Origin: a virus
IMG/VR virus record: IMGVR_UViG_3300045733_000243
Coordinates: 1-52,351 of that record
Direction: 5' to 3' (one strand)
DNA: 52,351 nucleotides
The position numbers and the translations under genes are program-made. This document shows positions 13,690 to 52,351 of this stretch, in pieces; positions within the stretch are counted from its first letter, which is position 1, and every line of letters starts with the position of its first letter. Under the pieces are notes generated by a model that worked only from the letters and a program-made list of their open reading frames with translations, ran no database searches and had not been told where the DNA came from.

Positions 13690-14945
13690 ACCACCCCACG
13701 GCTAAAGCCGGGGGCTTTGTCCCTGTACTAGGCGGCGGATTTTAGACCGCAATGCCGTTCCGAGACTTGAGGCCAGTTTACTTTGGCCTTGGCGCTGATA
13801 TTCCGCGCCGCGTTAAGATCAGCGTGGGCTTCATGCCCGCAATGCCGACATTTGAACTCTGATTGACTGCGGCGGTTGGCTTTGTCAACTACGCCGCAGG
13901 CGTTGCACATCCGAGATGTATTTCGCGGATCAACGGCAAACACTTCAACACCCGCCAGTTGGGACTTGTACTCTATGAACTGGCGAAGCTGAAAGAAGGA
14001 CCATCCGTGTATACGAGCCCGCTGACGCTTATGAAGCCGTATTCTGTCGCGAATTCCGCTCAAGTCTTCGAGCGCAATCCCGCGTCCAGTGCCTTTGGCT
14101 GTCTCAACGAGATGCTTGGAAATGCAATGATTAGTGTGCGCCCGGAACCGGGCTTCCTTTTTGGACTGGCGTTTAAGCTTGCGTCTGATGCTTTTCGGCC
14201 GCTTTCCCTTGGCCTTGACTGCTGCGGCGGCCTTCTGAAGCGCGCGGCGCGCGGTAGCGAAACGCTGGCGGCAAGCCTCAATGGCGTCGCCAGACAAGAG
14301 ATCGCCGTCGCTCGTGGCTGCAATGTTGGCCACTCCGAGATCAACGCCGAGAAAATCCGTAGTTGGCGTCTTGGTCCCGTCCGGCAACGTCACTGTAACG
14401 AGCAAGAACCACAGCCCGTCCTTGCGCCGGACAAGATCGCATTGACCTTTGGCGGCGGTAAACCGCTCAGACTGATACTGCCCCATGACGAACGGAACAA
14501 TGATGCGACCCTTGAGCGTCAGCAACGACACACGGTCAACGCCCTTGAACGACATCATGCGCTGGTCAAACGGCATGGATGCAAATGGTCGGAAGCTTAC
14601 GCGCTTCGTCTTGTCGCGCTTGTACGCCTCACATGTCTGCGCGATACAGCGAACAGCCATCTGAGAGGAAAGGCTGAAATTGGCGCGAAGCTCAGCATAA
14701 TGAAGCTTCTGAAGCTCAATCTTATTCGTGCATCGGATATCGAACGCCTTACCTGCAAGCCAGTCGGCAGCGCGGTTAAACGCGCGCAACGTCGCCTCAA
14801 GATCGGCGATCTGCTCTTTCGATGGCAACAGTTGTGTTTGCAGGGTCATTTTCATTCCTCATGCATAGGCTGAAAACGTCACAATGTCAATCTTAAAACA
14901 ACAAGACGCGCATTCCTCCCCACGCATAAATGCGGGGGCTTCCAG
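13690..14945 (-). mobile_element. IS605-type element with tnpB only
   Basis: A single minus-strand tnpB is flanked by two related hairpins: ACCCCACGGC...GGGGGCTT at 13693-13717 (3' side of the gene) and CCCCACGCAT...GGGGGCTT at 14918-14941 (5' side). Subterminal imperfect palindromes, not inverted repeats, are how IS200/IS605 ends look. No tnpA is present, so it would need a transposase in trans. It starts within a few bases of the chaperone stop codon and leaves the next gene intact. Exact boundaries are estimates. Confidence 0.75.
13728..14855 (-). CDS. tnpB: TnpB RNA-guided nuclease (IS605 OrfB family)
   Basis: 375 residues, full length. The RuvC active site appears complete: GVDLGVANIA (D172), ALEDLSGIRD (E263) and HADLNAARN (D346). 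The zinc ribbon is MCNACG (C317, C320) and KCRHCG (C336, C339). TnpB proteins use a right-end-derived omega RNA to cut double-stranded DNA next to a target-adjacent motif, and help retain the element by cutting empty sites. It is antisense to the late operon. The guide would be read from the flank beyond 13690, that is, from the 3' end of the chaperone gene. The intact motifs suggest an active enzyme. Confidence 0.92.
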   Translation of the reverse strand: MKMTLQTQLLPSKEQIADLEATLRAFNRAADWLAGKAFDIRCTNKIELQKLHYAELRANFSLSSQMAVRCIAQTCEAYKRDKTKRVSFRPFASMPFDQRMMSFKGVDRVSLLTLKGRIIVPFVMGQYQSERFTAAKGQCDLVRRKDGLWFLLVTVTLPDGTKTPTTDFLGVDLGVANIAATSDGDLLSGDAIEACRQRFATARRALQKAAAAVKAKGKRPKSIRRKLKRQSKKEARFRAHTNHCISKHLVETAKGTGRGIALEDLSGIRDRIRLHKRQRARIHGWSFFQLRQFIEYKSQLAGVEVFAVDPRNTSRMCNACGVVDKANRRSQSEFKCRHCGHEAHADLNAARNISAKAKVNWPQVSERHCGLKSAA

Positions 14946-34663: not shown

Positions 34664-36352
34664 CTAAAACCCTGCACATCTCTGCTCATCCCTGAGTAAA
34701 GTTGCGCATGGACGTCCACCGAGCAGTTTTGTGGACGGTTCGCGTGACGGGATCGCACCGTCATGCGTCCGTGGCGGAAACGTCGGGTTCGCAAGGAACG
34801 CGGCGTCTTCCTCCAGAGACCTGTCCCAAGCCGGGGCGGCTTGCGCCGTCCTCGCCTGGGAAGGTCCAGCAGCCTTGCGGCGGCCGGTCGGACGCAGCCC
34901 TTTGAGGGCCGCTTTCCAGGCGCCCATCGCTCTCGCCCATTGGTCCCGCACATGCCTACGGCCGATCCTTGCAGGTCGGGCGAGGGTGACACGGGACTGG
35001 TTGCGCTTCCTGGTGGCGGGGATGTCCCCGGCCGGGAGCGCAAGCGAGAGCGGCAGACGCTCGGAATAATTCATTGCGCGCCTGCCGATAACGACGGCGG
35101 CTGCGTGATGCACGGAAAGGCCGTAGCGCACCATGAAGCGGGCGCGACCTTGGAATGAGGTGTAAGCCGGATCAACGGCAAGCACGGCGACGCCTTCGCG
35201 AGCTGCGCGGCGCTCCAGCATCGTGCGGAAGCCGTTGAAGGCGAAGGCCGAAAGCATGCGCGCCATACGCGGCCGTGCTTCCTCGCGCAGACGGGTTTTC
35301 TTCGCCTCGAAGTCCAGATCCTCGATCACGATAGGCACGCCCCGGCGCTTGGCCAGCGCGACCAGCCGGGCAGCGGCGTTGCCGATGGACGCCTCAACCT
35401 GATCCGTGCGGCGATGCTGCGTCAGCATCGGGACCGTGAACCGGCCTTTGGGATTGCCGTGGGCGTCAAGAAACGCGGCGGCGAGGAAACCGGCGTTCAT
35501 GTCCACCGCGAGACATCCGCGCGCAAAGTCCGGCGCAGCGTCGGGGAGTTCCTGAAAGAGGCTGACGAACACGCGCCAGCCCTTGGCGTCGCGGACAAAG
35601 CGCCAGGACAGCGCTTCGCCTTGGTCCGTGGCGTGCGCCTGGATCGCGGCCGTCACGACGTCGTGGCCGTAACCAAAGCGCACGGGGCCGAGTTCGATGT
35701 ATTTCTTGGAGCCAAGCTCGCGCCATACCGCGTCGGGCAGGCGCAGGCGCAGCATAACCACGCCGTCGGCGGTCAACGTCGCGGTGCAAGTCTGGTTGCC
35801 GGACGCCTCGTCCTTGGAGCCGAGACAAAAGAACTGGCTGGCGCGCCGCTCGCGCCACACGCCTTGCCATTCGGCATGATCGGAGAAGCCGTTCTCTTCC
35901 AAATGATGCTGCGCGTTGAACAACTTGGCTGAGCCGAAGCAGAGCGCGGGAGCTGGGCGCTTTATCTCTGCGCGGATTGCGGTCTGCCGGTCACGCAAAA
36001 TGCCGAGGCGGCGCTTTTTCTGATGCAGCTTCGCGGCGGACGCTTTGCGCTTCTCCAGTTTACGGATGGTCTTGAGCGTCACCTTGATGCGGGCGTCCAG
36101 CTCACGCAACCGAAGCTTGCCGATTTCCTTCAGGCTCGACGCCTTGCCCTTCGCCGCAACCGCCAGCGCGTTGAACTGGCGAGCCGTGATCCCAAACCGG
36201 CGCAAGAATTCGCTCTTGCAGTCGTTGGGTTTACGGCCTTTCGCCATCTCAGCCCACAAGCAGCGCTCCGCACGAGAAAGCAGAGCCGCAGTCGCGTCAA
36301 GAGCAGGATGGCCGTCAATTCGAGCTTGGAAGGTGCTGGCTTGATTGATCAT
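34664..36352 (-). CDS. tnpB: TnpB-like protein of an IS607-type element
   Basis: 562 residues, longer than typical TnpB. RuvC-I is LAVDMNAGFLAAAF (D284) and RuvC-II is IVIEDLDFEAKK (E344). RuvC-III is not canonical: GLSVHHAAAVVIGRRAM (His 415-416) replaces the usual D.NAA. No C..C zinc ribbon is present. The N-terminus (60-135) is a Lys-rich helical bundle. This fits the large TnpB-related proteins that accompany IS607 recombinases. Its start overlaps tnpA's stop (ATGA). The last 11 residues are read past the 12-bp end repeat into flanking DNA, so the native C-terminus may be altered. Nuclease activity cannot be assumed. Confidence 0.8.
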   Translation of the reverse strand: MINQASTFQARIDGHPALDATAALLSRAERCLWAEMAKGRKPNDCKSEFLRRFGITARQFNALAVAAKGKASSLKEIGKLRLRELDARIKVTLKTIRKLEKRKASAAKLHQKKRRLGILRDRQTAIRAEIKRPAPALCFGSAKLFNAQHHLEENGFSDHAEWQGVWRERRASQFFCLGSKDEASGNQTCTATLTADGVVMLRLRLPDAVWRELGSKKYIELGPVRFGYGHDVVTAAIQAHATDQGEALSWRFVRDAKGWRVFVSLFQELPDAAPDFARGCLAVDMNAGFLAAAFLDAHGNPKGRFTVPMLTQHRRTDQVEASIGNAAARLVALAKRRGVPIVIEDLDFEAKKTRLREEARPRMARMLSAFAFNGFRTMLERRAAREGVAVLAVDPAYTSFQGRARFMVRYGLSVHHAAAVVIGRRAMNYSERLPLSLALPAGDIPATRKRNQSRVTLARPARIGRRHVRDQWARAMGAWKAALKGLRPTGRRKAAGPSQARTAQAAPAWDRSLEEDAAFLANPTFPPRTHDGAIPSREPSTKLLGGRPCATLLRDEQRCAGF

Positions 36353-37001
36353 GACTCGCCAGCCTCTTCAACTGCACGCTTTACGCCTTCGAGAAGCTTC
36401 TTATTCTTCTTTGAGCGTGCACCGTAAAGTCTAGCGGAAAAAACTGTAATTATTTCAAGAACATCTGTGGCGAGGTCTTGTTCAAACGTGGTGTCTTCGC
36501 CCTTATTCAGGATGACAACCTCAACATTCCGAGCCTCGCAGATGGCGAACACTAACTCAGCGCCAAAGCGTAAGAGTCTATCCTTATGCGTCAAGACAAG
36601 TCGGCCAATGTTGTTGTCAATGATGTTTTCAATTAGGCGCTTTAAGCCCTTTTTATGATAGTTCATCCCCGAGCCGAGATCGGAGACGACTTCGAACGTC
36701 CAGCCTTGGGCGGCGCAATACGCCTCAAGAACCTGCTTCTGACGCTCTAAATCGGCTTTTTGATCGTGGCTTGACACGCGAGCATAGGCGATGGTCTTGC
36801 GCTCGGCATCGTCGGCGGCGCGGAACAACTCCGGGCGCAGCGCGGAAATATCATACCGCCGTTGTCCGCCCTTCGTGCGCTGGGGTATGAGTTTCCCTTC
36901 GCGCTCCCAACGGCGAAGCGTCTGAGGAGATACCCTCAGAGCTTCCGCCGCTTCGCTTATGGTCAATAACTTGTTCATGGCGTATATGTATGCGCAACTT
37001 T
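34698..37001 (-). mobile_element. IS607-type transposon
   Basis: The serine recombinase and TnpB-like genes are bounded by AAAGTTGCGCAT (34698-34709) and ATGCGCAACTTT (36990-37001), a 12-bp inverted repeat 2.3 kb apart. IS607 elements usually insert at GG dinucleotides without target duplication; GGG lies just outside both repeats, so true ends could be about 10-25 bases further out. The right end abuts a truncated Rha gene. Confidence 0.75.
36349..36978 (-). CDS. tnpA: IS607-family serine recombinase/transposase
   Basis: 209 residues, complete. N-terminal MerR-like helix-turn-helix LTISEAAEALRVSPQTLRRW then EREGKLIPQRT (1-35), then a small serine recombinase domain: IAYARVSSHDQKADLERQ (catalytic Ser in RVSS, about residue 69), LVLTHKDRLLRFG and a C-terminal helical stretch. 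This order (HTH first, catalytic domain second) is specific to IS607 transposases. Overlaps tnpB by 4 bases and the truncated Rha frame by 4 bases. Confidence 0.95.
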   Translation of the reverse strand: MNKLLTISEAAEALRVSPQTLRRWEREGKLIPQRTKGGQRRYDISALRPELFRAADDAERKTIAYARVSSHDQKADLERQKQVLEAYCAAQGWTFEVVSDLGSGMNYHKKGLKRLIENIIDNNIGRLVLTHKDRLLRFGAELVFAICEARNVEVVILNKGEDTTFEQDLATDVLEIITVFSARLYGARSKKNKKLLEGVKRAVEEAGES

Positions 37002-37800: not shown

Positions 37801-38211
37801 CTAAGCCGCCCTACGCTGGCCCAATCCCATTTTCTTGGCGAGTTCTGAGCGCTGTGCAGCATATGCCGGGGAAACCATCGGGTAATCCATCGGTAGTCCC
37901 CACTTTGCGCGATACTCTTCTGGGCTAAGATCGTAGTTGGTGCGGATATGCCTTTTAAGACTGCGGAACTTCTTGCCGTCCTCCAAGCAAATGATGAATT
38001 CAGGCGTTACCGACTTCTTGATAGAGACAGCCGGAACCAGTTCCACCTTCGGCTGAGCGGCACCGTTCAACGCCACATCACTCAACATCGTGTGCACCGA
38101 CGTGATTAAATCGGGCACCTTGTCCGCCTGAATGGTGTTGTGCGAAACATACGCGGCAACAATCCTACCGGTAAGTTCAAGGATATTCTCTTCCATTCCA
38201 ATATCTTCCAT
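37801..38211 (-). CDS. MucR/Ros-family transcriptional regulator
   Basis: 136 residues. FIICLEDGKKFRSLKRHIRT, then YDLSPEEYRAKWGLPMDYPM and YAAQRSELAKKMGLG, is the conserved C-terminal zinc-finger-like domain of MucR/Ros regulators, which are essentially alphaproteobacterial. The metal ligands appear as Cys (CLED), Asp and His (KRH), with Asn where a second His can occur. The N-terminus (LELTGRIVAAYVSHNTIQ) is the oligomerisation part. Start at 38211 or 38196; both have weak ribosome sites. Host MucR silences foreign AT-rich DNA and surface genes, so a phage copy could re-tune them. Confidence 0.9.
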   Translation of the reverse strand: MEDIGMEENILELTGRIVAAYVSHNTIQADKVPDLITSVHTMLSDVALNGAAQPKVELVPAVSIKKSVTPEFIICLEDGKKFRSLKRHIRTNYDLSPEEYRAKWGLPMDYPMVSPAYAAQRSELAKKMGLGQRRAA

Positions 38212-42545: not shown

Positions 42546-42969
42546 TGTGCTGCCTATCCGGTTGGTCCTGGGTGGTTGGCCTCTACCGGCCTCGGGGTTG
42601 TCGCCCTGGGGCCGTTTGTGTTCGGACTGTCGTCCGCTAAGTGGGCCGCCGAAGCAGCCCACGAAAGCATAATTCATTGGGTTAACCCCTTTCTGTCTTC
42701 GCTTGCGCGAGTAATGTTTGCCTCGCCCGGTGTAAAAGGCTTGTCATATCCGAGACCTTCGATGCATCCCCAGACACATCTTCATGATTTCGAACGATAG
42801 AGCGTCAGACTGGCACGCATCCGACGGTATCGTGACCTTCTAAACGTCTCCTCTTGCGAGGGGGCTGGTCAGTAATTGGGGCCTCTACAAGCCCCCGGCT
42901 TTAGCCGTGGGGTTACTGACGGCCCGAAATGGCCTCTGTGTAGGGGTCGGGAGCGCGAATGTCGCCGGA
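42546..42969. other. 424-base gap containing an IS605-end relic
   Basis: No convincing gene. It holds a palindrome GGGTTAACCC at about 42680-42689 and the copy of an IS605-type end listed separately (42889-42913). The stretch 42815-42890 may be a leftover guide-RNA scaffold. Confidence 0.5.
42889..42913 (+). repeat. Solo IS605-type end, inverted copy of 13693-13717
   Basis: All 25 bases match, in reverse orientation, the end hairpin of the TnpB element at 13.7 kb (pieces AAGCCCCCGGC and TTTAGCCGTGGGGT). No tnpB or second end was found within 1 kb, so it is a relic or a miniature element. Confidence 0.8.
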
Positions 42970-49391: not shown

Positions 49392-49763
49392 TTACGCCGT
49401 AACGCCCACGCGGCGGACGATGCGGACGATGCGGACGGCGCGACGCAGCACAGCGCCGACGCCAGCAAGCGCTTGCTCGGCTGGTGCAGGCTGCTCCTTC
49501 GTCTCGCAGGGGATACCCGAACGCCAAGCCACAATGGCCTCCCACAGCGGCTTTTCCGCGATATTTGTCCGCCCATACCGGCCGACAAGCTTGGCGACGC
49601 GGCTCCAGTCCGGGCCGGGCCGGTCGAACGGACGCCGGTTACATCGCGGGTTGCGCTCGACGGCCGCATAAGGCACGCCGCGAACGAATGCGAGGGCGAC
49701 CAAGGCGGCGCGCTGCTCACGGGCGACAACTTCGCGGCGGTGATGCTGAAGGTTGCGCAACAG
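49392..49763 (-). pseudogene. C-terminal part of a split phage protein
   Basis: The frame reads LRNLQHHRREVV then AREQRAALVALAFVRGVPYA and WSRVAKLVGRYG to TAA at 49392. These are the last 122 codons of a small phage protein whose first 35 codons lie at 51234-51338. The ALVALAFVRGVPY..VE core is typical of small phage proteins of unknown function. Interrupted by the RHH-TnpB element; the two parts join in frame at a shared CTG codon (CAG on the + strand at 49761-49763 and 51234-51236). The fragment also has an in-frame ATG at 49781 inside the element. Confidence 0.8.
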
Positions 49764-49814
49764 TAGGCAAAATCCTGCCAAATTCTAACTGAAGTTACCG
49801 AATGCGCTTTCCGG

Positions 49815-49849
49815 TTGACAGTGCCGCTTATCGAGTGCATAAATGCACC
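49815..49849 (+). promoter_or_regulatory. Promoter and operator of the RHH-tnpB operon
   Basis: TTGACA (49815-49820), a 17-base spacer, CATAAA (49838-49843). The palindrome GTGCAT-AA-ATGCAC (49836-49849) covers the -10. It ends 2 bases before the RHH start codon, an ideal position for autorepression. Confidence 0.8.
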
Positions 49850-49851
49850 TC

Positions 49852-49989
49852 ATGAGCACAACCAAACGACAGTCTGTAGTTCTCACCGAACCACAGCTCA
49901 AGTTTCTGAAGGCTGAGGCTAAGAAGCTTGGAATAAGCATGTCGGATTTGATCCGGCGCATCATTGATCAATACCGGGAAGGCAAATAA
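49852..49989 (+). CDS. 45-residue ribbon-helix-helix protein, tnpB partner
   Basis: Small gene from ATG 49852 (ATG 49843 in frame lies inside the operator). RQSVVLTEPQLKFLKAEAKK is the strand and first helix, and LGISMSDLIRRIIDQYREGK the second helix of an RHH fold. It ends 3 bases before tnpB, so the two are almost certainly co-transcribed and coupled. Probably represses its own operon through the palindrome at 49836-49849, limiting TnpB levels. Minimal length for RHH proteins. Confidence 0.8.
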   Translation: MSTTKRQSVVLTEPQLKFLKAEAKKLGISMSDLIRRIIDQYREGK

Positions 49990-49992
49990 AGC

Positions 49993-51198
49993 ATGCTCCT
50001 CGTCCACAAAATAGCGCTGAACCCTAACAACAGACAGGCTGGCCTTATGGCCAAGTCTGCCGGTGTTGCACGGTTTGCCTATAACTGGGCGTTAGGAGAA
50101 TGGAACCGGCAGTACGAAGCTGGCGGCAAGCCATCTGAAGTATCTTTGCGCAAGCAGTTCAACGCACTGAAGAAGTCAAATTTCCCATGGTGCTATGAGG
50201 TGACAAAGAACGCCCCACAGCAAGCCATCAAGAACTTGGGGAAGGCGTTCGAGCGCTTCTTCAAGAAGCAAGGCAAATACCCACGGTTTAAGCGCAAAGG
50301 CGTCCACGACAGCTTCCGCGCTGACGATGGAACTGGGAAAACGAAACCGCAGGCTGTCCAGATCGAAGGCAAGCGCGTCAAACTCCCGGTCATCGGCTGG
50401 GTGAGGATGCGTGAAGAACTCCGGTTCAGCGGCCAAGTCCGCTCCGCAGTCGTGTCAAAGACTGCCGGACGCTGGTTCGTTGCATTGAGCGTAGATACTG
50501 AAGACCAACCCGAGACGTGCGAAAACCAAGGCGTCATCGGTGTCGATCTTGGAATAAAGACTATGGCGGTTTGCTCAAACGGAATGAAGTTTGAAGCCCC
50601 GAATGCTCTGCGCAAGCGTCTGAAGAAGCTTGCAAAGCTTCAGAGGATTGTTGCACGGCGCAAGAAGGGATCGAAGAACCGGCGCAAAGCTGTGGCGAAA
50701 GTGGCGAGACTGCACGCGAAGATCGCGAATATTCGCTCCGACGCGCTGCACAAGGCCACCACGGCAATCTGCAAGAGCGGAAGTCTTATCGTCCTTGAAG
50801 ACCTCAATGTCAAAGGAATGATGAAGAACGGCAAGCTTTCGCGCGCCATATCCGACGTTGGGCTGTACGAATTCCGCCGCCAGTCCGAGTACAAGACAGC
50901 TTTATTCGGCTCGGACATCATGTTTGCGCCAAGGTTTGAGCCGACAAGCAAGCGCTGTTCACGTTGCAAAGTCGTCCGCAAGACTTTGCTTTTGAGCGAG
51001 CGCGAGTGGACATGCGACAACTGCGGCGCACATCACGACCGCGACGAGAACGCCGCACAGAATTTAGAAGACTATGGTACCGCCAGATCGGCGGGAACTT
51101 ACGCCTGTGGAGAATTCAGCGCTGACGGCTTGCTTGCGCAAGTCGTGAAACTGAACTCAGTGAAGCAGGAAATATTCACAGGAGCTACGCAATGTTAG
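49993..51198 (+). CDS. tnpB: TnpB RNA-guided nuclease
   Basis: 401 residues, complete. RuvC: VIGVDLGIKTMAV (D185), LIVLEDLNVKGM (E269), HHDRDENAAQN (D351). Zinc ribbon: RCSRCK (C322, C325) and CDNCG (C341, C344). N-terminal helical part with FAYNWALGEWNRQY as in other TnpB. Closest in style to ISDra2-type TnpB. Immediately follows the RHH gene. The omega RNA probably overlaps its 3' end and the following 35 bases, with the guide beginning at the element's right boundary. Confidence 0.93.
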   Translation: MLLVHKIALNPNNRQAGLMAKSAGVARFAYNWALGEWNRQYEAGGKPSEVSLRKQFNALKKSNFPWCYEVTKNAPQQAIKNLGKAFERFFKKQGKYPRFKRKGVHDSFRADDGTGKTKPQAVQIEGKRVKLPVIGWVRMREELRFSGQVRSAVVSKTAGRWFVALSVDTEDQPETCENQGVIGVDLGIKTMAVCSNGMKFEAPNALRKRLKKLAKLQRIVARRKKGSKNRRKAVAKVARLHAKIANIRSDALHKATTAICKSGSLIVLEDLNVKGMMKNGKLSRAISDVGLYEFRRQSEYKTALFGSDIMFAPRFEPTSKRCSRCKVVRKTLLLSEREWTCDNCGAHHDRDENAAQNLEDYGTARSAGTYACGEFSADGLLAQVVKLNSVKQEIFTGATQC

Positions 51199-51233
51199 CA
51201 AATGGTAAGAAATATGGATCGGCGCCACCAGTC
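51100..51233 (+). ncRNA. Probable omega RNA scaffold of the RHH-TnpB element
   Basis: In TnpB systems the guide RNA scaffold comes from the 3' end of tnpB through the right end. That region here is 51100-51233; the guide would then be the bases from 51234 onward, antisense to the interrupted gene. Extent inferred from family, no structure solved here. Confidence 0.4.
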
Positions 51234-51338
51234 CAGTGACGAACGCGGATGCCGCGCTTCTTCCGCGCGGATGATGCGGGCTTCGGCGGCGAGGGACTTG
51301 ATTTTAACGCGGAGTTCAGGGAATTTCGTTGACTTCAT
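51234..51338 (-). pseudogene. N-terminal part of the split phage protein
   Basis: From ATG 51338 (GGAGA 8 bases upstream): KFPELRVKIKSLAAEARIIR then a short run to RHPRSSL, 35 codons up to the element boundary. KIKSLAAEARIIR..E is the usual start of small phage proteins whose C-terminal half has LAFVRG.PY, as seen at 49392-49763. Reading on into the element loses the family pattern at once. Confidence 0.8.
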
Positions 51339-51434: not shown

Positions 51435-51505
51435 TGGCGAACCACTCCGGGATCGAACCGGACGCCGCTGGGTTAGAAGCCGGGGCGCGCGCCAGCAAGT
51501 GGCTC
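51435..51505 (-). tRNA. tRNA-like sequence, degenerate (anticodon position UCU)
   Basis: Read on the minus strand: GAGCCAC pairs with GTGGTTC (acceptor, one G-U), a perfect T-arm TCCGG-TTCGATC-CCGGA, and a 3' G-CCA. The anticodon loop would be CTTCTAA (UCU, Arg) but its stem has only three of five pairs, and the D-arm is short. Total 71 bases. Either a decayed phage tRNA-Arg or an att-type remnant. Confidence 0.4.
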
Positions 51506-51615
51506 GTGGCGAAGATATACTGCGGAGCTGGGCGGAGATCAAGGGGCGGGCGTCAAAACGCTTGACTCTCAGCGCTCCCTGGTCCAATGTGTCCCTGCAC
51601 ACAATCTGTTGAGAT

Positions 51616-51653: not shown

Positions 51654-51756
51654 GCGTGCTTAGCTCATCGGCGACGAAGCGCCAGCCAGATCGCGGATGA
51701 CCTGCGCCGCGCTCGCGACGCCCATCGGTTTCCGGCTCTGCGCGATCGTGAATACT

Positions 51757-51788
51757 CCCCAACTAAGCGCAGAGCGCTGTAGTTGGGG
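51757..51788 (-). repeat. IS605-type end hairpin at the 3' end of the partial tnpB
   Basis: CCCCAACTA-AGCGC pairs with GCGCT-(G)-TAGTTGGGG, followed by CTT as in the other elements here. The tnpB stop codon (51765-51763, minus) lies inside it. Confidence 0.7.
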
Positions 51789-52351
51789 CTTCTCGGTTCG
51801 CGGAGCATTGCGCACCACTCTTGCGAGTTTTGCGGCTTACAGGCTCTCCCCGAGCGTTGGGATTACTCCCGGTTCCGACCATCCCGGCCGTACCTTCCTT
51901 ACGGATATTGGCGCGCTTGCGTTCTTTTGGCGACCATTGACCAGACAGGATAATATCCACGCCCCTGTTCGCAACATTGCGCGAGGCGTTTCTGTCGGCA
52001 TTCTCAATGGCTCCGCAGTCTTGGCAAACAAACAGGCTTTGGCTGACCCGGTTGTTAGGATGTGTGCAGCCACAAAAGCTGCAATCCTGCGAGGAACGAT
52101 AGGGCGTTACGGATATGCTAAGCTTGTGAAGTCTCCGCGCTTTGTACGCGGTGTAGGTTTTAGTCTGGCTCCAGGCGGACGCGAGGATGGAACGATTGAG
52201 GCCAGCTTTCTGGCGGACGTTGCGGCCGGGAGCGTCGGCGGTCCCTTTTGCCGACGCCGTCATGTTCTTGACCTTGAGGTCTTCGAAGACGATCAGCGCA
52301 ACGCGCGGGTCGTTGGCGAGGGCGTGGCTGGCCTTGTGGGCGAAGTCCCGG
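51763..52351 (-). CDS. tnpB: TnpB RNA-guided nuclease, partial (5' end outside window)
   Basis: The frame is open to the window end; 195 residues visible. RuvC-II is ALIVFEDLKVKNM (visible E23), the zinc ribbon is DCSFCG (90, 93) and VCQDCG (109, 112), and RuvC-III is NADRNASRNVA (D119). It is followed by about 75 residues rich in Arg/Gly/Ser. The sequence differs clearly from the other three. A hairpin end includes the stop codon. A complete enzyme is likely but unproven. Confidence 0.88.
   Translation of the reverse strand, partial: RDFAHKASHALANDPRVALIVFEDLKVKNMTASAKGTADAPGRNVRQKAGLNRSILASAWSQTKTYTAYKARRLHKLSISVTPYRSSQDCSFCGCTHPNNRVSQSLFVCQDCGAIENADRNASRNVANRGVDIILSGQWSPKERKRANIRKEGTAGMVGTGSNPNARGEPVSRKTRKSGAQCSANREAPTTALCA

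What the first reader, a model, noticed from the sequence alone, without database searches (positions are those of the whole stretch)
49392..51338. RHH-TnpB element splits a phage gene; removal restores a 157-codon frame
N-terminal 35 codons (51338-51234) and C-terminal 122 codons (49763-49392) meet at a CTG codon present at both junctions. Rejoined, they read RHPRSSL then LRNLQHHRREVV with no frame break. This gives element ends to within three bases without outside data. The omega RNA guide would match the uninterrupted gene, the behaviour expected of TnpB homing.
Basis: seen in the sequence. Interest (0 to 1): 0.85.

Follow-up and report, generated by a model that had tools for sequence, protein, structure and literature searches.

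The report
TnpB insertion splitting a phage gene
A small mobile DNA element carrying an RNA-guided nuclease (TnpB) and a short DNA-binding protein has landed inside a small phage gene and split it in two; elements of this general kind are known, but this one has lost its own transposase and carries an unusual companion gene in its place.

Summary
The core observation holds. A tnpB gene (49993-51198, +), preceded by a 48-codon ribbon-helix-helix (RHH) gene, splits a minus-strand phage gene. A profile built only from 48 intact phage homologues finds both halves in the window, in order and without overlap (E 3e-7 and 7e-13; next best 2). Three insertions at unrelated sites (window, L084, L236) all end ...GATCGG, so the right end is 51222, not 51234. 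A covariance model built only from relatives also ends at 51222 (E 3e-14). Removing 49768-51222 between GG dinucleotides, the IS607 crossover, restores a 163-codon frame, not 157. The left end rests on this frame and a single GG, and is weaker (an in-frame GG is expected by chance about 68% of the time). The TnpB belongs to the IS607 lineage and keeps its D-E-D triad, but the element has no transposase. The same phage carries an intact IS607 TnpA (36349-36978) that could move it in trans. The RHH sits directly behind a palindrome, suggesting autorepression. The 89% identical copy L084 lacks RHH; RHH relatives occur in front of an HNH/endonuclease VII-like gene. Verdict: new variant of a known kind, moderate interest.

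The parts
51223..51338 (-). 5' part of the split phage gene (38 codons plus 2 bases, conserved N-terminal motif ELRVKIKSLAAEARIIRAEE)
   Evidence: HMM of 48 intact homologues, E 2.8e-7, profile 4-26; blastn 95% over 43 bp to DSS3_MAL1 MAL1_00030
49392..49767 (-). 3' part of the split phage gene, stop codon at 49392-49394
   Evidence: HMM E 7.1e-13, profile 45-121
49768..51222 (+). inserted element, 1455 bp, IS607-type ends; GG at 49766-67 and at 51221-22, so the end assignment is ambiguous by 2 bp
   Evidence: right end: three independent insertions and CM end; left end: only GG in the admissible stretch and frame restoration, weaker
49835..49848 (.). palindrome GTGCATAAATGCAC just before the likely RHH start (49852), candidate operator
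   Evidence: only exact copy in the window; palindromes of other sequence sit at the same place before RHH relatives in L238, L240, L241
49843..49989 (+). RHH (CopG-type) protein, 48 codons from first ATG; likely true start at 49852
   Evidence: Pfam RHH_1 26.3 bits over cut-off 20.5; relatives
49993..51198 (+). TnpB, 401 aa, putative RuvC triad D185, E269, D351 and zinc ribbon
   Evidence: Pfam OrfB_IS605, Cas12f1-like_TNB, HTH_OrfB_IS605; NCBIfam guided_TnpB 322 bits over 100; aligned to solved ISDra2 TnpB 8bf8; positions
51104..51222 (+). omega RNA (reRNA) scaffold overlapping the 3' end of tnpB and ending at the element end
   Evidence: CM R1 built only from relatives: 74.6 bits, E 2.6e-14, model 1-120 of 120; weak Rfam RAGATH-18 match 51104-51171
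51223..51242 (+). predicted guide segment CGCCACCAGTCCAGTGACGA, part of the split gene
   Evidence: follows the scaffold end; inferred, no RNA data
36349..36978 (-). intact IS607 TnpA (serine recombinase) elsewhere in the same phage, candidate helper in trans
   Evidence: NCBIfam NF033518 219 bits over 110; 72-77% identical to TnpA next to TnpB relatives in L004, L007, L086

Best explanation
It is an IS607-lineage insertion element of about 1.46 kb (49768-51222) that has lost its own transposase and keeps tnpB and its omega RNA, with an RHH gene where tnpA would sit. It inserted by GG crossover into a small phage gene of the SIELKIK family and interrupted it. Shown: the gene is split; the right end; the omega RNA scaffold; intact nuclease motifs; absence of tnpA in the element. 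Inferred: a TnpA with the same end preference moved it in trans, plausibly the one in the same phage; TnpB loaded with the RNA whose guide starts at 51223 cuts an uninterrupted allele next to the left flank (..AGTAGG) and so keeps or copies the element by repair; RHH binds the palindrome before its own start and holds the operon low.
For: Both halves match one family profile independently, and intact homologues are many. The right end is identical in three unrelated sites and then diverges, with CGG ends also in IS607-type relatives. The omega RNA model made without the window ends at 51222. Close TnpB relatives sit behind serine-recombinase TnpA. IS607 elements insert at GG without target duplication (PMC6188088; PMC10711439). 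The D-E-D triad is intact. A TnpA of the matching clade lies in the same phage. The GG join reopens a 163-codon frame. A palindrome precedes the RHH start.
Against: The left end has no independent support: L084 shares nothing upstream of tnpB, an exact search for the left end found no other copy, and an in-frame GG is likely by chance. NCBIfam scores the protein higher with the IS200 model (345 bits) than the IS607 model (251), both below cut-off. RHH is absent from L084. No sigma-70-like promoter passed the scan before RHH. No empty allele of the same phage was found.
Confidence: 0.78

Rival explanations
1. Two nested events: an RHH gene, perhaps the remnant of an RHH-HNH cassette, was already in the split gene, and a TnpB element with its left end just before tnpB (around the GAAGG at the end of RHH) inserted behind it.
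For: The 89% identical L084 copy has no RHH, and its DNA identity starts at the tnpB start. RHH relatives occur without TnpB, in front of an HNH/endonuclease VII-like gene (L240, L241) or in a replication operon (L238).
Against: It needs an earlier RHH insertion that left no nuclease. The end of RHH and its stop are conserved with L238, so no break inside RHH is visible. A GG next to tnpB is close to chance.
Confidence: 0.18
2. The element is dead: TnpB and RHH are leftovers with no mobility and no homing.
For: No own transposase; only one copy with RHH found in the collections searched.
Against: Intact tnpB frame with catalytic residues, and a conserved omega RNA in three copies at three sites.
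Confidence: 0.15
3. The insertion is a self-splicing IStron or other intron, so the split gene still works.
For: IStrons combine group I introns with tnpB-bearing elements (PMC4227781).
Against: No group I or II intron match in Rfam in this stretch. The tnpB strand is opposite to the split gene, and the element has only about 75 bp before RHH and 24 bp after tnpB.
Confidence: 0.02
4. The two minus-strand pieces are unrelated open frames and nothing was split.
For: Frame restoration alone is weak; the pieces and the rejoined protein have no Pfam or PHROG match.
Against: Both pieces hit different, successive parts of one family profile.
Confidence: 0.01

Closest known systems
IS607 family elements (e.g. 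IS607, ISXfa1) with TnpB and reRNA
   Same: TnpB lineage, GG/CGG right end, omega RNA at the 3' end of tnpB ending at the element end
   Different: no tnpA in the element; an RHH gene stands in its place
tnpB-only elements (IS1341-like; name from own knowledge)
   Same: tnpB without transposase
   Different: IS607-type end and reRNA, RHH companion, possible helper TnpA in the same phage
ISFba1-type TnpB with RAGATH-18 reRNA (PMC11061315)
   Same: outer CCUGUGGAG...GAAGCAGGAA stem and position overlapping the end of tnpB
   Different: RAGATH-18 score 25 bits, below Rfam's gathering score of 44.9; TAM not known
Free-standing phage HNH homing endonucleases
   Same: RHH relatives directly precede an HNH/endonuclease VII-like gene in L240 and L241; selfish nuclease on the strand opposite to its neighbours
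   Different: protein-guided nuclease, not RNA-guided; sits between genes in L240

Membership tests
TnpB RNA-guided nuclease | OrfB/RuvC and zinc-ribbon domains | tested here: met
TnpB RNA-guided nuclease | catalytic D-E-D triad | tested here: met
   aligned to 8bf8; residues 185, 269, 351
TnpB RNA-guided nuclease | omega RNA at the right end running into the flank | tested here: met
   for the scaffold; expression not testable
TnpB RNA-guided nuclease | RNA-guided cleavage next to a TAM | not testable with these tools
   needs bench work
IS607 family | serine recombinase TnpA in the element | tested here: not met
   no tnpA between 49768 and 51222; one lies at 36349-36978
IS607 family | GG at both ends, no target duplication | tested here: inconclusive
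   right end met by three copies; left end only inferred
IS607 family | TnpB of the IS607 lineage | tested here: met
   close relatives sit behind TnpA of IS607 type, although the NCBIfam IS200 model scores higher
IS200/IS605 family | Y1 TnpA and hairpin ends | tested here: inconclusive
   no other gene in the element than RHH and tnpB; end hairpins not specifically tested
IStron | group I intron part | tested here: not met
   no Rfam intron match
RHH/CopG proteins | ribbon-helix-helix domain | tested here: met
   by sequence only: Pfam RHH_1 above cut-off

The most novel reading that the evidence does not exclude
Small RHH genes with a palindromic operator are portable autorepressors of selfish phage nucleases, shared between protein-guided HNH and RNA-guided TnpB cassettes; here the RHH-TnpB cassette is mobilised in trans by an IS607 TnpA of the same phage.
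Probability: 0.2. Interest if true: 0.6.

Novelty: new variant of a known kind. Interest (0 to 1): 0.42.

Why it matters
It gives a TnpB locus with an exact right end, a known split target and a possible helper transposase in one phage genome, so both homing (cutting of the uninterrupted allele) and trans-mobilisation become directly testable. If the RHH part holds up, it would show how phages keep a resident RNA-guided nuclease under control and link two unrelated kinds of selfish nuclease through one regulator.

Tried and rejected
Host-gene searches with the C-terminal piece or the rejoined protein found nothing in phages, plasmids, viral contigs, genome contigs or PHROGs; the family was reached only through a 43-bp DNA match to DSS3_MAL1. 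Primase search in viral contigs was empty. Exact left-end search found no other copy. The left end against L084 upstream DNA was no better than shuffles. End repeats between left and right ends were not significant, nor was similarity of these ends to those of the TnpA element. 385 genomes drawn from the class of the L010 genome gave no close copy. Records of portal relatives gave no intact allele. The joined-by-CTG and joined-by-GG proteins score about alike on the family profile (67.8 and 70.4 bits), so the profile does not choose the junction. A group I intron was considered and rejected.

Full report
What is there. The window is a whole IMG/VR virus record. At 49843-49989 (+) lies a short RHH gene and at 49993-51198 (+) a tnpB gene. 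The TnpB has the OrfB, zinc-ribbon and N-terminal HTH domains, scores 322 bits on NCBIfam guided_TnpB, and aligns to the solved ISDra2 TnpB with its active-site residues present, D185, E269 and D351 here. On the minus strand, open frames run from 51338 to 51195 and from 49781 to 49392.

Is one gene split? Searches with either piece or the rejoined protein found nothing at first. A 43-bp DNA match led to gene MAL1_00030 of phage DSS3_MAL1, an uninterrupted 115-aa protein that aligns with both pieces. Its relatives are common in viral contigs (74 loci). A profile from 48 sequences of this family, built without the window, finds the upstream piece (E 2.8e-7, profile 4-26) and the downstream piece (E 7.1e-13, profile 45-121), and nothing else in the window below E 2. 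The split lies in the variable linker, so the family proves the split but cannot place the junction.

Right end. L084 carries an 89% identical TnpB; its DNA matches the window up to GATCGG (51222) plus two chance bases. L236 carries the same end at a third site, where the end abuts a 201-codon open frame that reads like a phage gene. All three go ...AAATATRGATCGG and then differ. Most relatives end in CGG as well. A covariance model from nine relatives, without the window, matches 51104-51222 from first to last position (74.6 bits, E 2.6e-14), and L084 and L236 likewise.

Left end. IS607 elements recombine at GG and make no target duplication (PMC6188088; PMC10711439). In the stretch allowed by the stop codon at 49785-49787 and the conserved LQHHR region there is one GG, 49766-49767; joining it to 51223 gives a 163-codon frame. 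By chance an in-frame GG occurs in about 68% of shuffles, so this is consistent rather than proof. L084 has no similar DNA upstream of tnpB, and no other copy of the left end was found.

Family. The closest TnpBs lie behind IS607-type serine recombinases. The element here has none. The same phage, however, has an intact IS607 TnpA at 36349-36978, 72-77% identical to TnpAs that sit next to TnpBs of this group. Helper action in trans is therefore plausible but untested.

RHH. It is found with TnpB only here. L084 lacks it, and no small ORF upstream of tnpB in 157 related loci is a clear RHH (judged by eye except L092, which was scanned). Relatives of the RHH stand in a replication operon (L238) and directly before an HNH/endonuclease VII-like gene (L240; shortened in L241). 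Each of these, and the window's, has a palindrome just before its start, with different sequences, which suggests autoregulation.

How it most likely works. Shown: split gene, right end, scaffold RNA, intact nuclease motifs. Inferred: the guide begins at 51223 and matches the intact gene; the TAM is the left flank ending TAGG; cutting of empty alleles favours the element; RHH limits expression. That TnpB is a programmable RNA-guided nuclease which may help keep its transposon is known from IS200/IS605 and IS607 work (PMC8612924, PMC11061315, PMC10711439), so the finding is a variant of a known kind. Papers naming both TnpB and ribbon-helix-helix are few, and judging by titles and abstracts none describes such a pair (not read in full), and the library is partial.

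Noticed in passing
34664-36978 minus: An IS607 element: intact TnpA followed by a divergent 562-aa OrfB with only a partial TnpB match; a GAGCGG end-like motif lies at the orfB stop, and the upstream Rha-like gene overlaps the tnpA start and looks truncated.
   Followed up: partly
51763-52351 minus: C-terminal part of another TnpB cut by the record end, with a weak omega RNA match at 51733-51854 (21 bits, E 0.008); the frame after its end may be a second split gene.
   Followed up: partly
13731-14855 minus: A further TnpB, 375 aa, about 29% identical to the one studied.
   Followed up: no
42711-42920 minus: HEARO RNA (IscB omega RNA), 107.8 bits over cut-off 83, with no IscB found in the ORFs tested beside it: a possible stand-alone guide RNA.
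   Followed up: partly
51435-51506 minus: tRNA-like stretch ending TTCGATCCCGGAGTGGTTCGCCA, below the Rfam cut-off and not called by ARAGORN; could be an attachment site or a decayed tRNA.
   Followed up: partly
37801-38211 minus: Phage-borne ROS/MucR regulator (163 bits), which hints at an alphaproteobacterial host.
   Followed up: no
L240 2492-3198; L241 2492-2844: RHH gene directly before an HNH/endonuclease VII-like gene, whole in L240 and shortened in L241, between minus-strand phage genes.
   Followed up: partly
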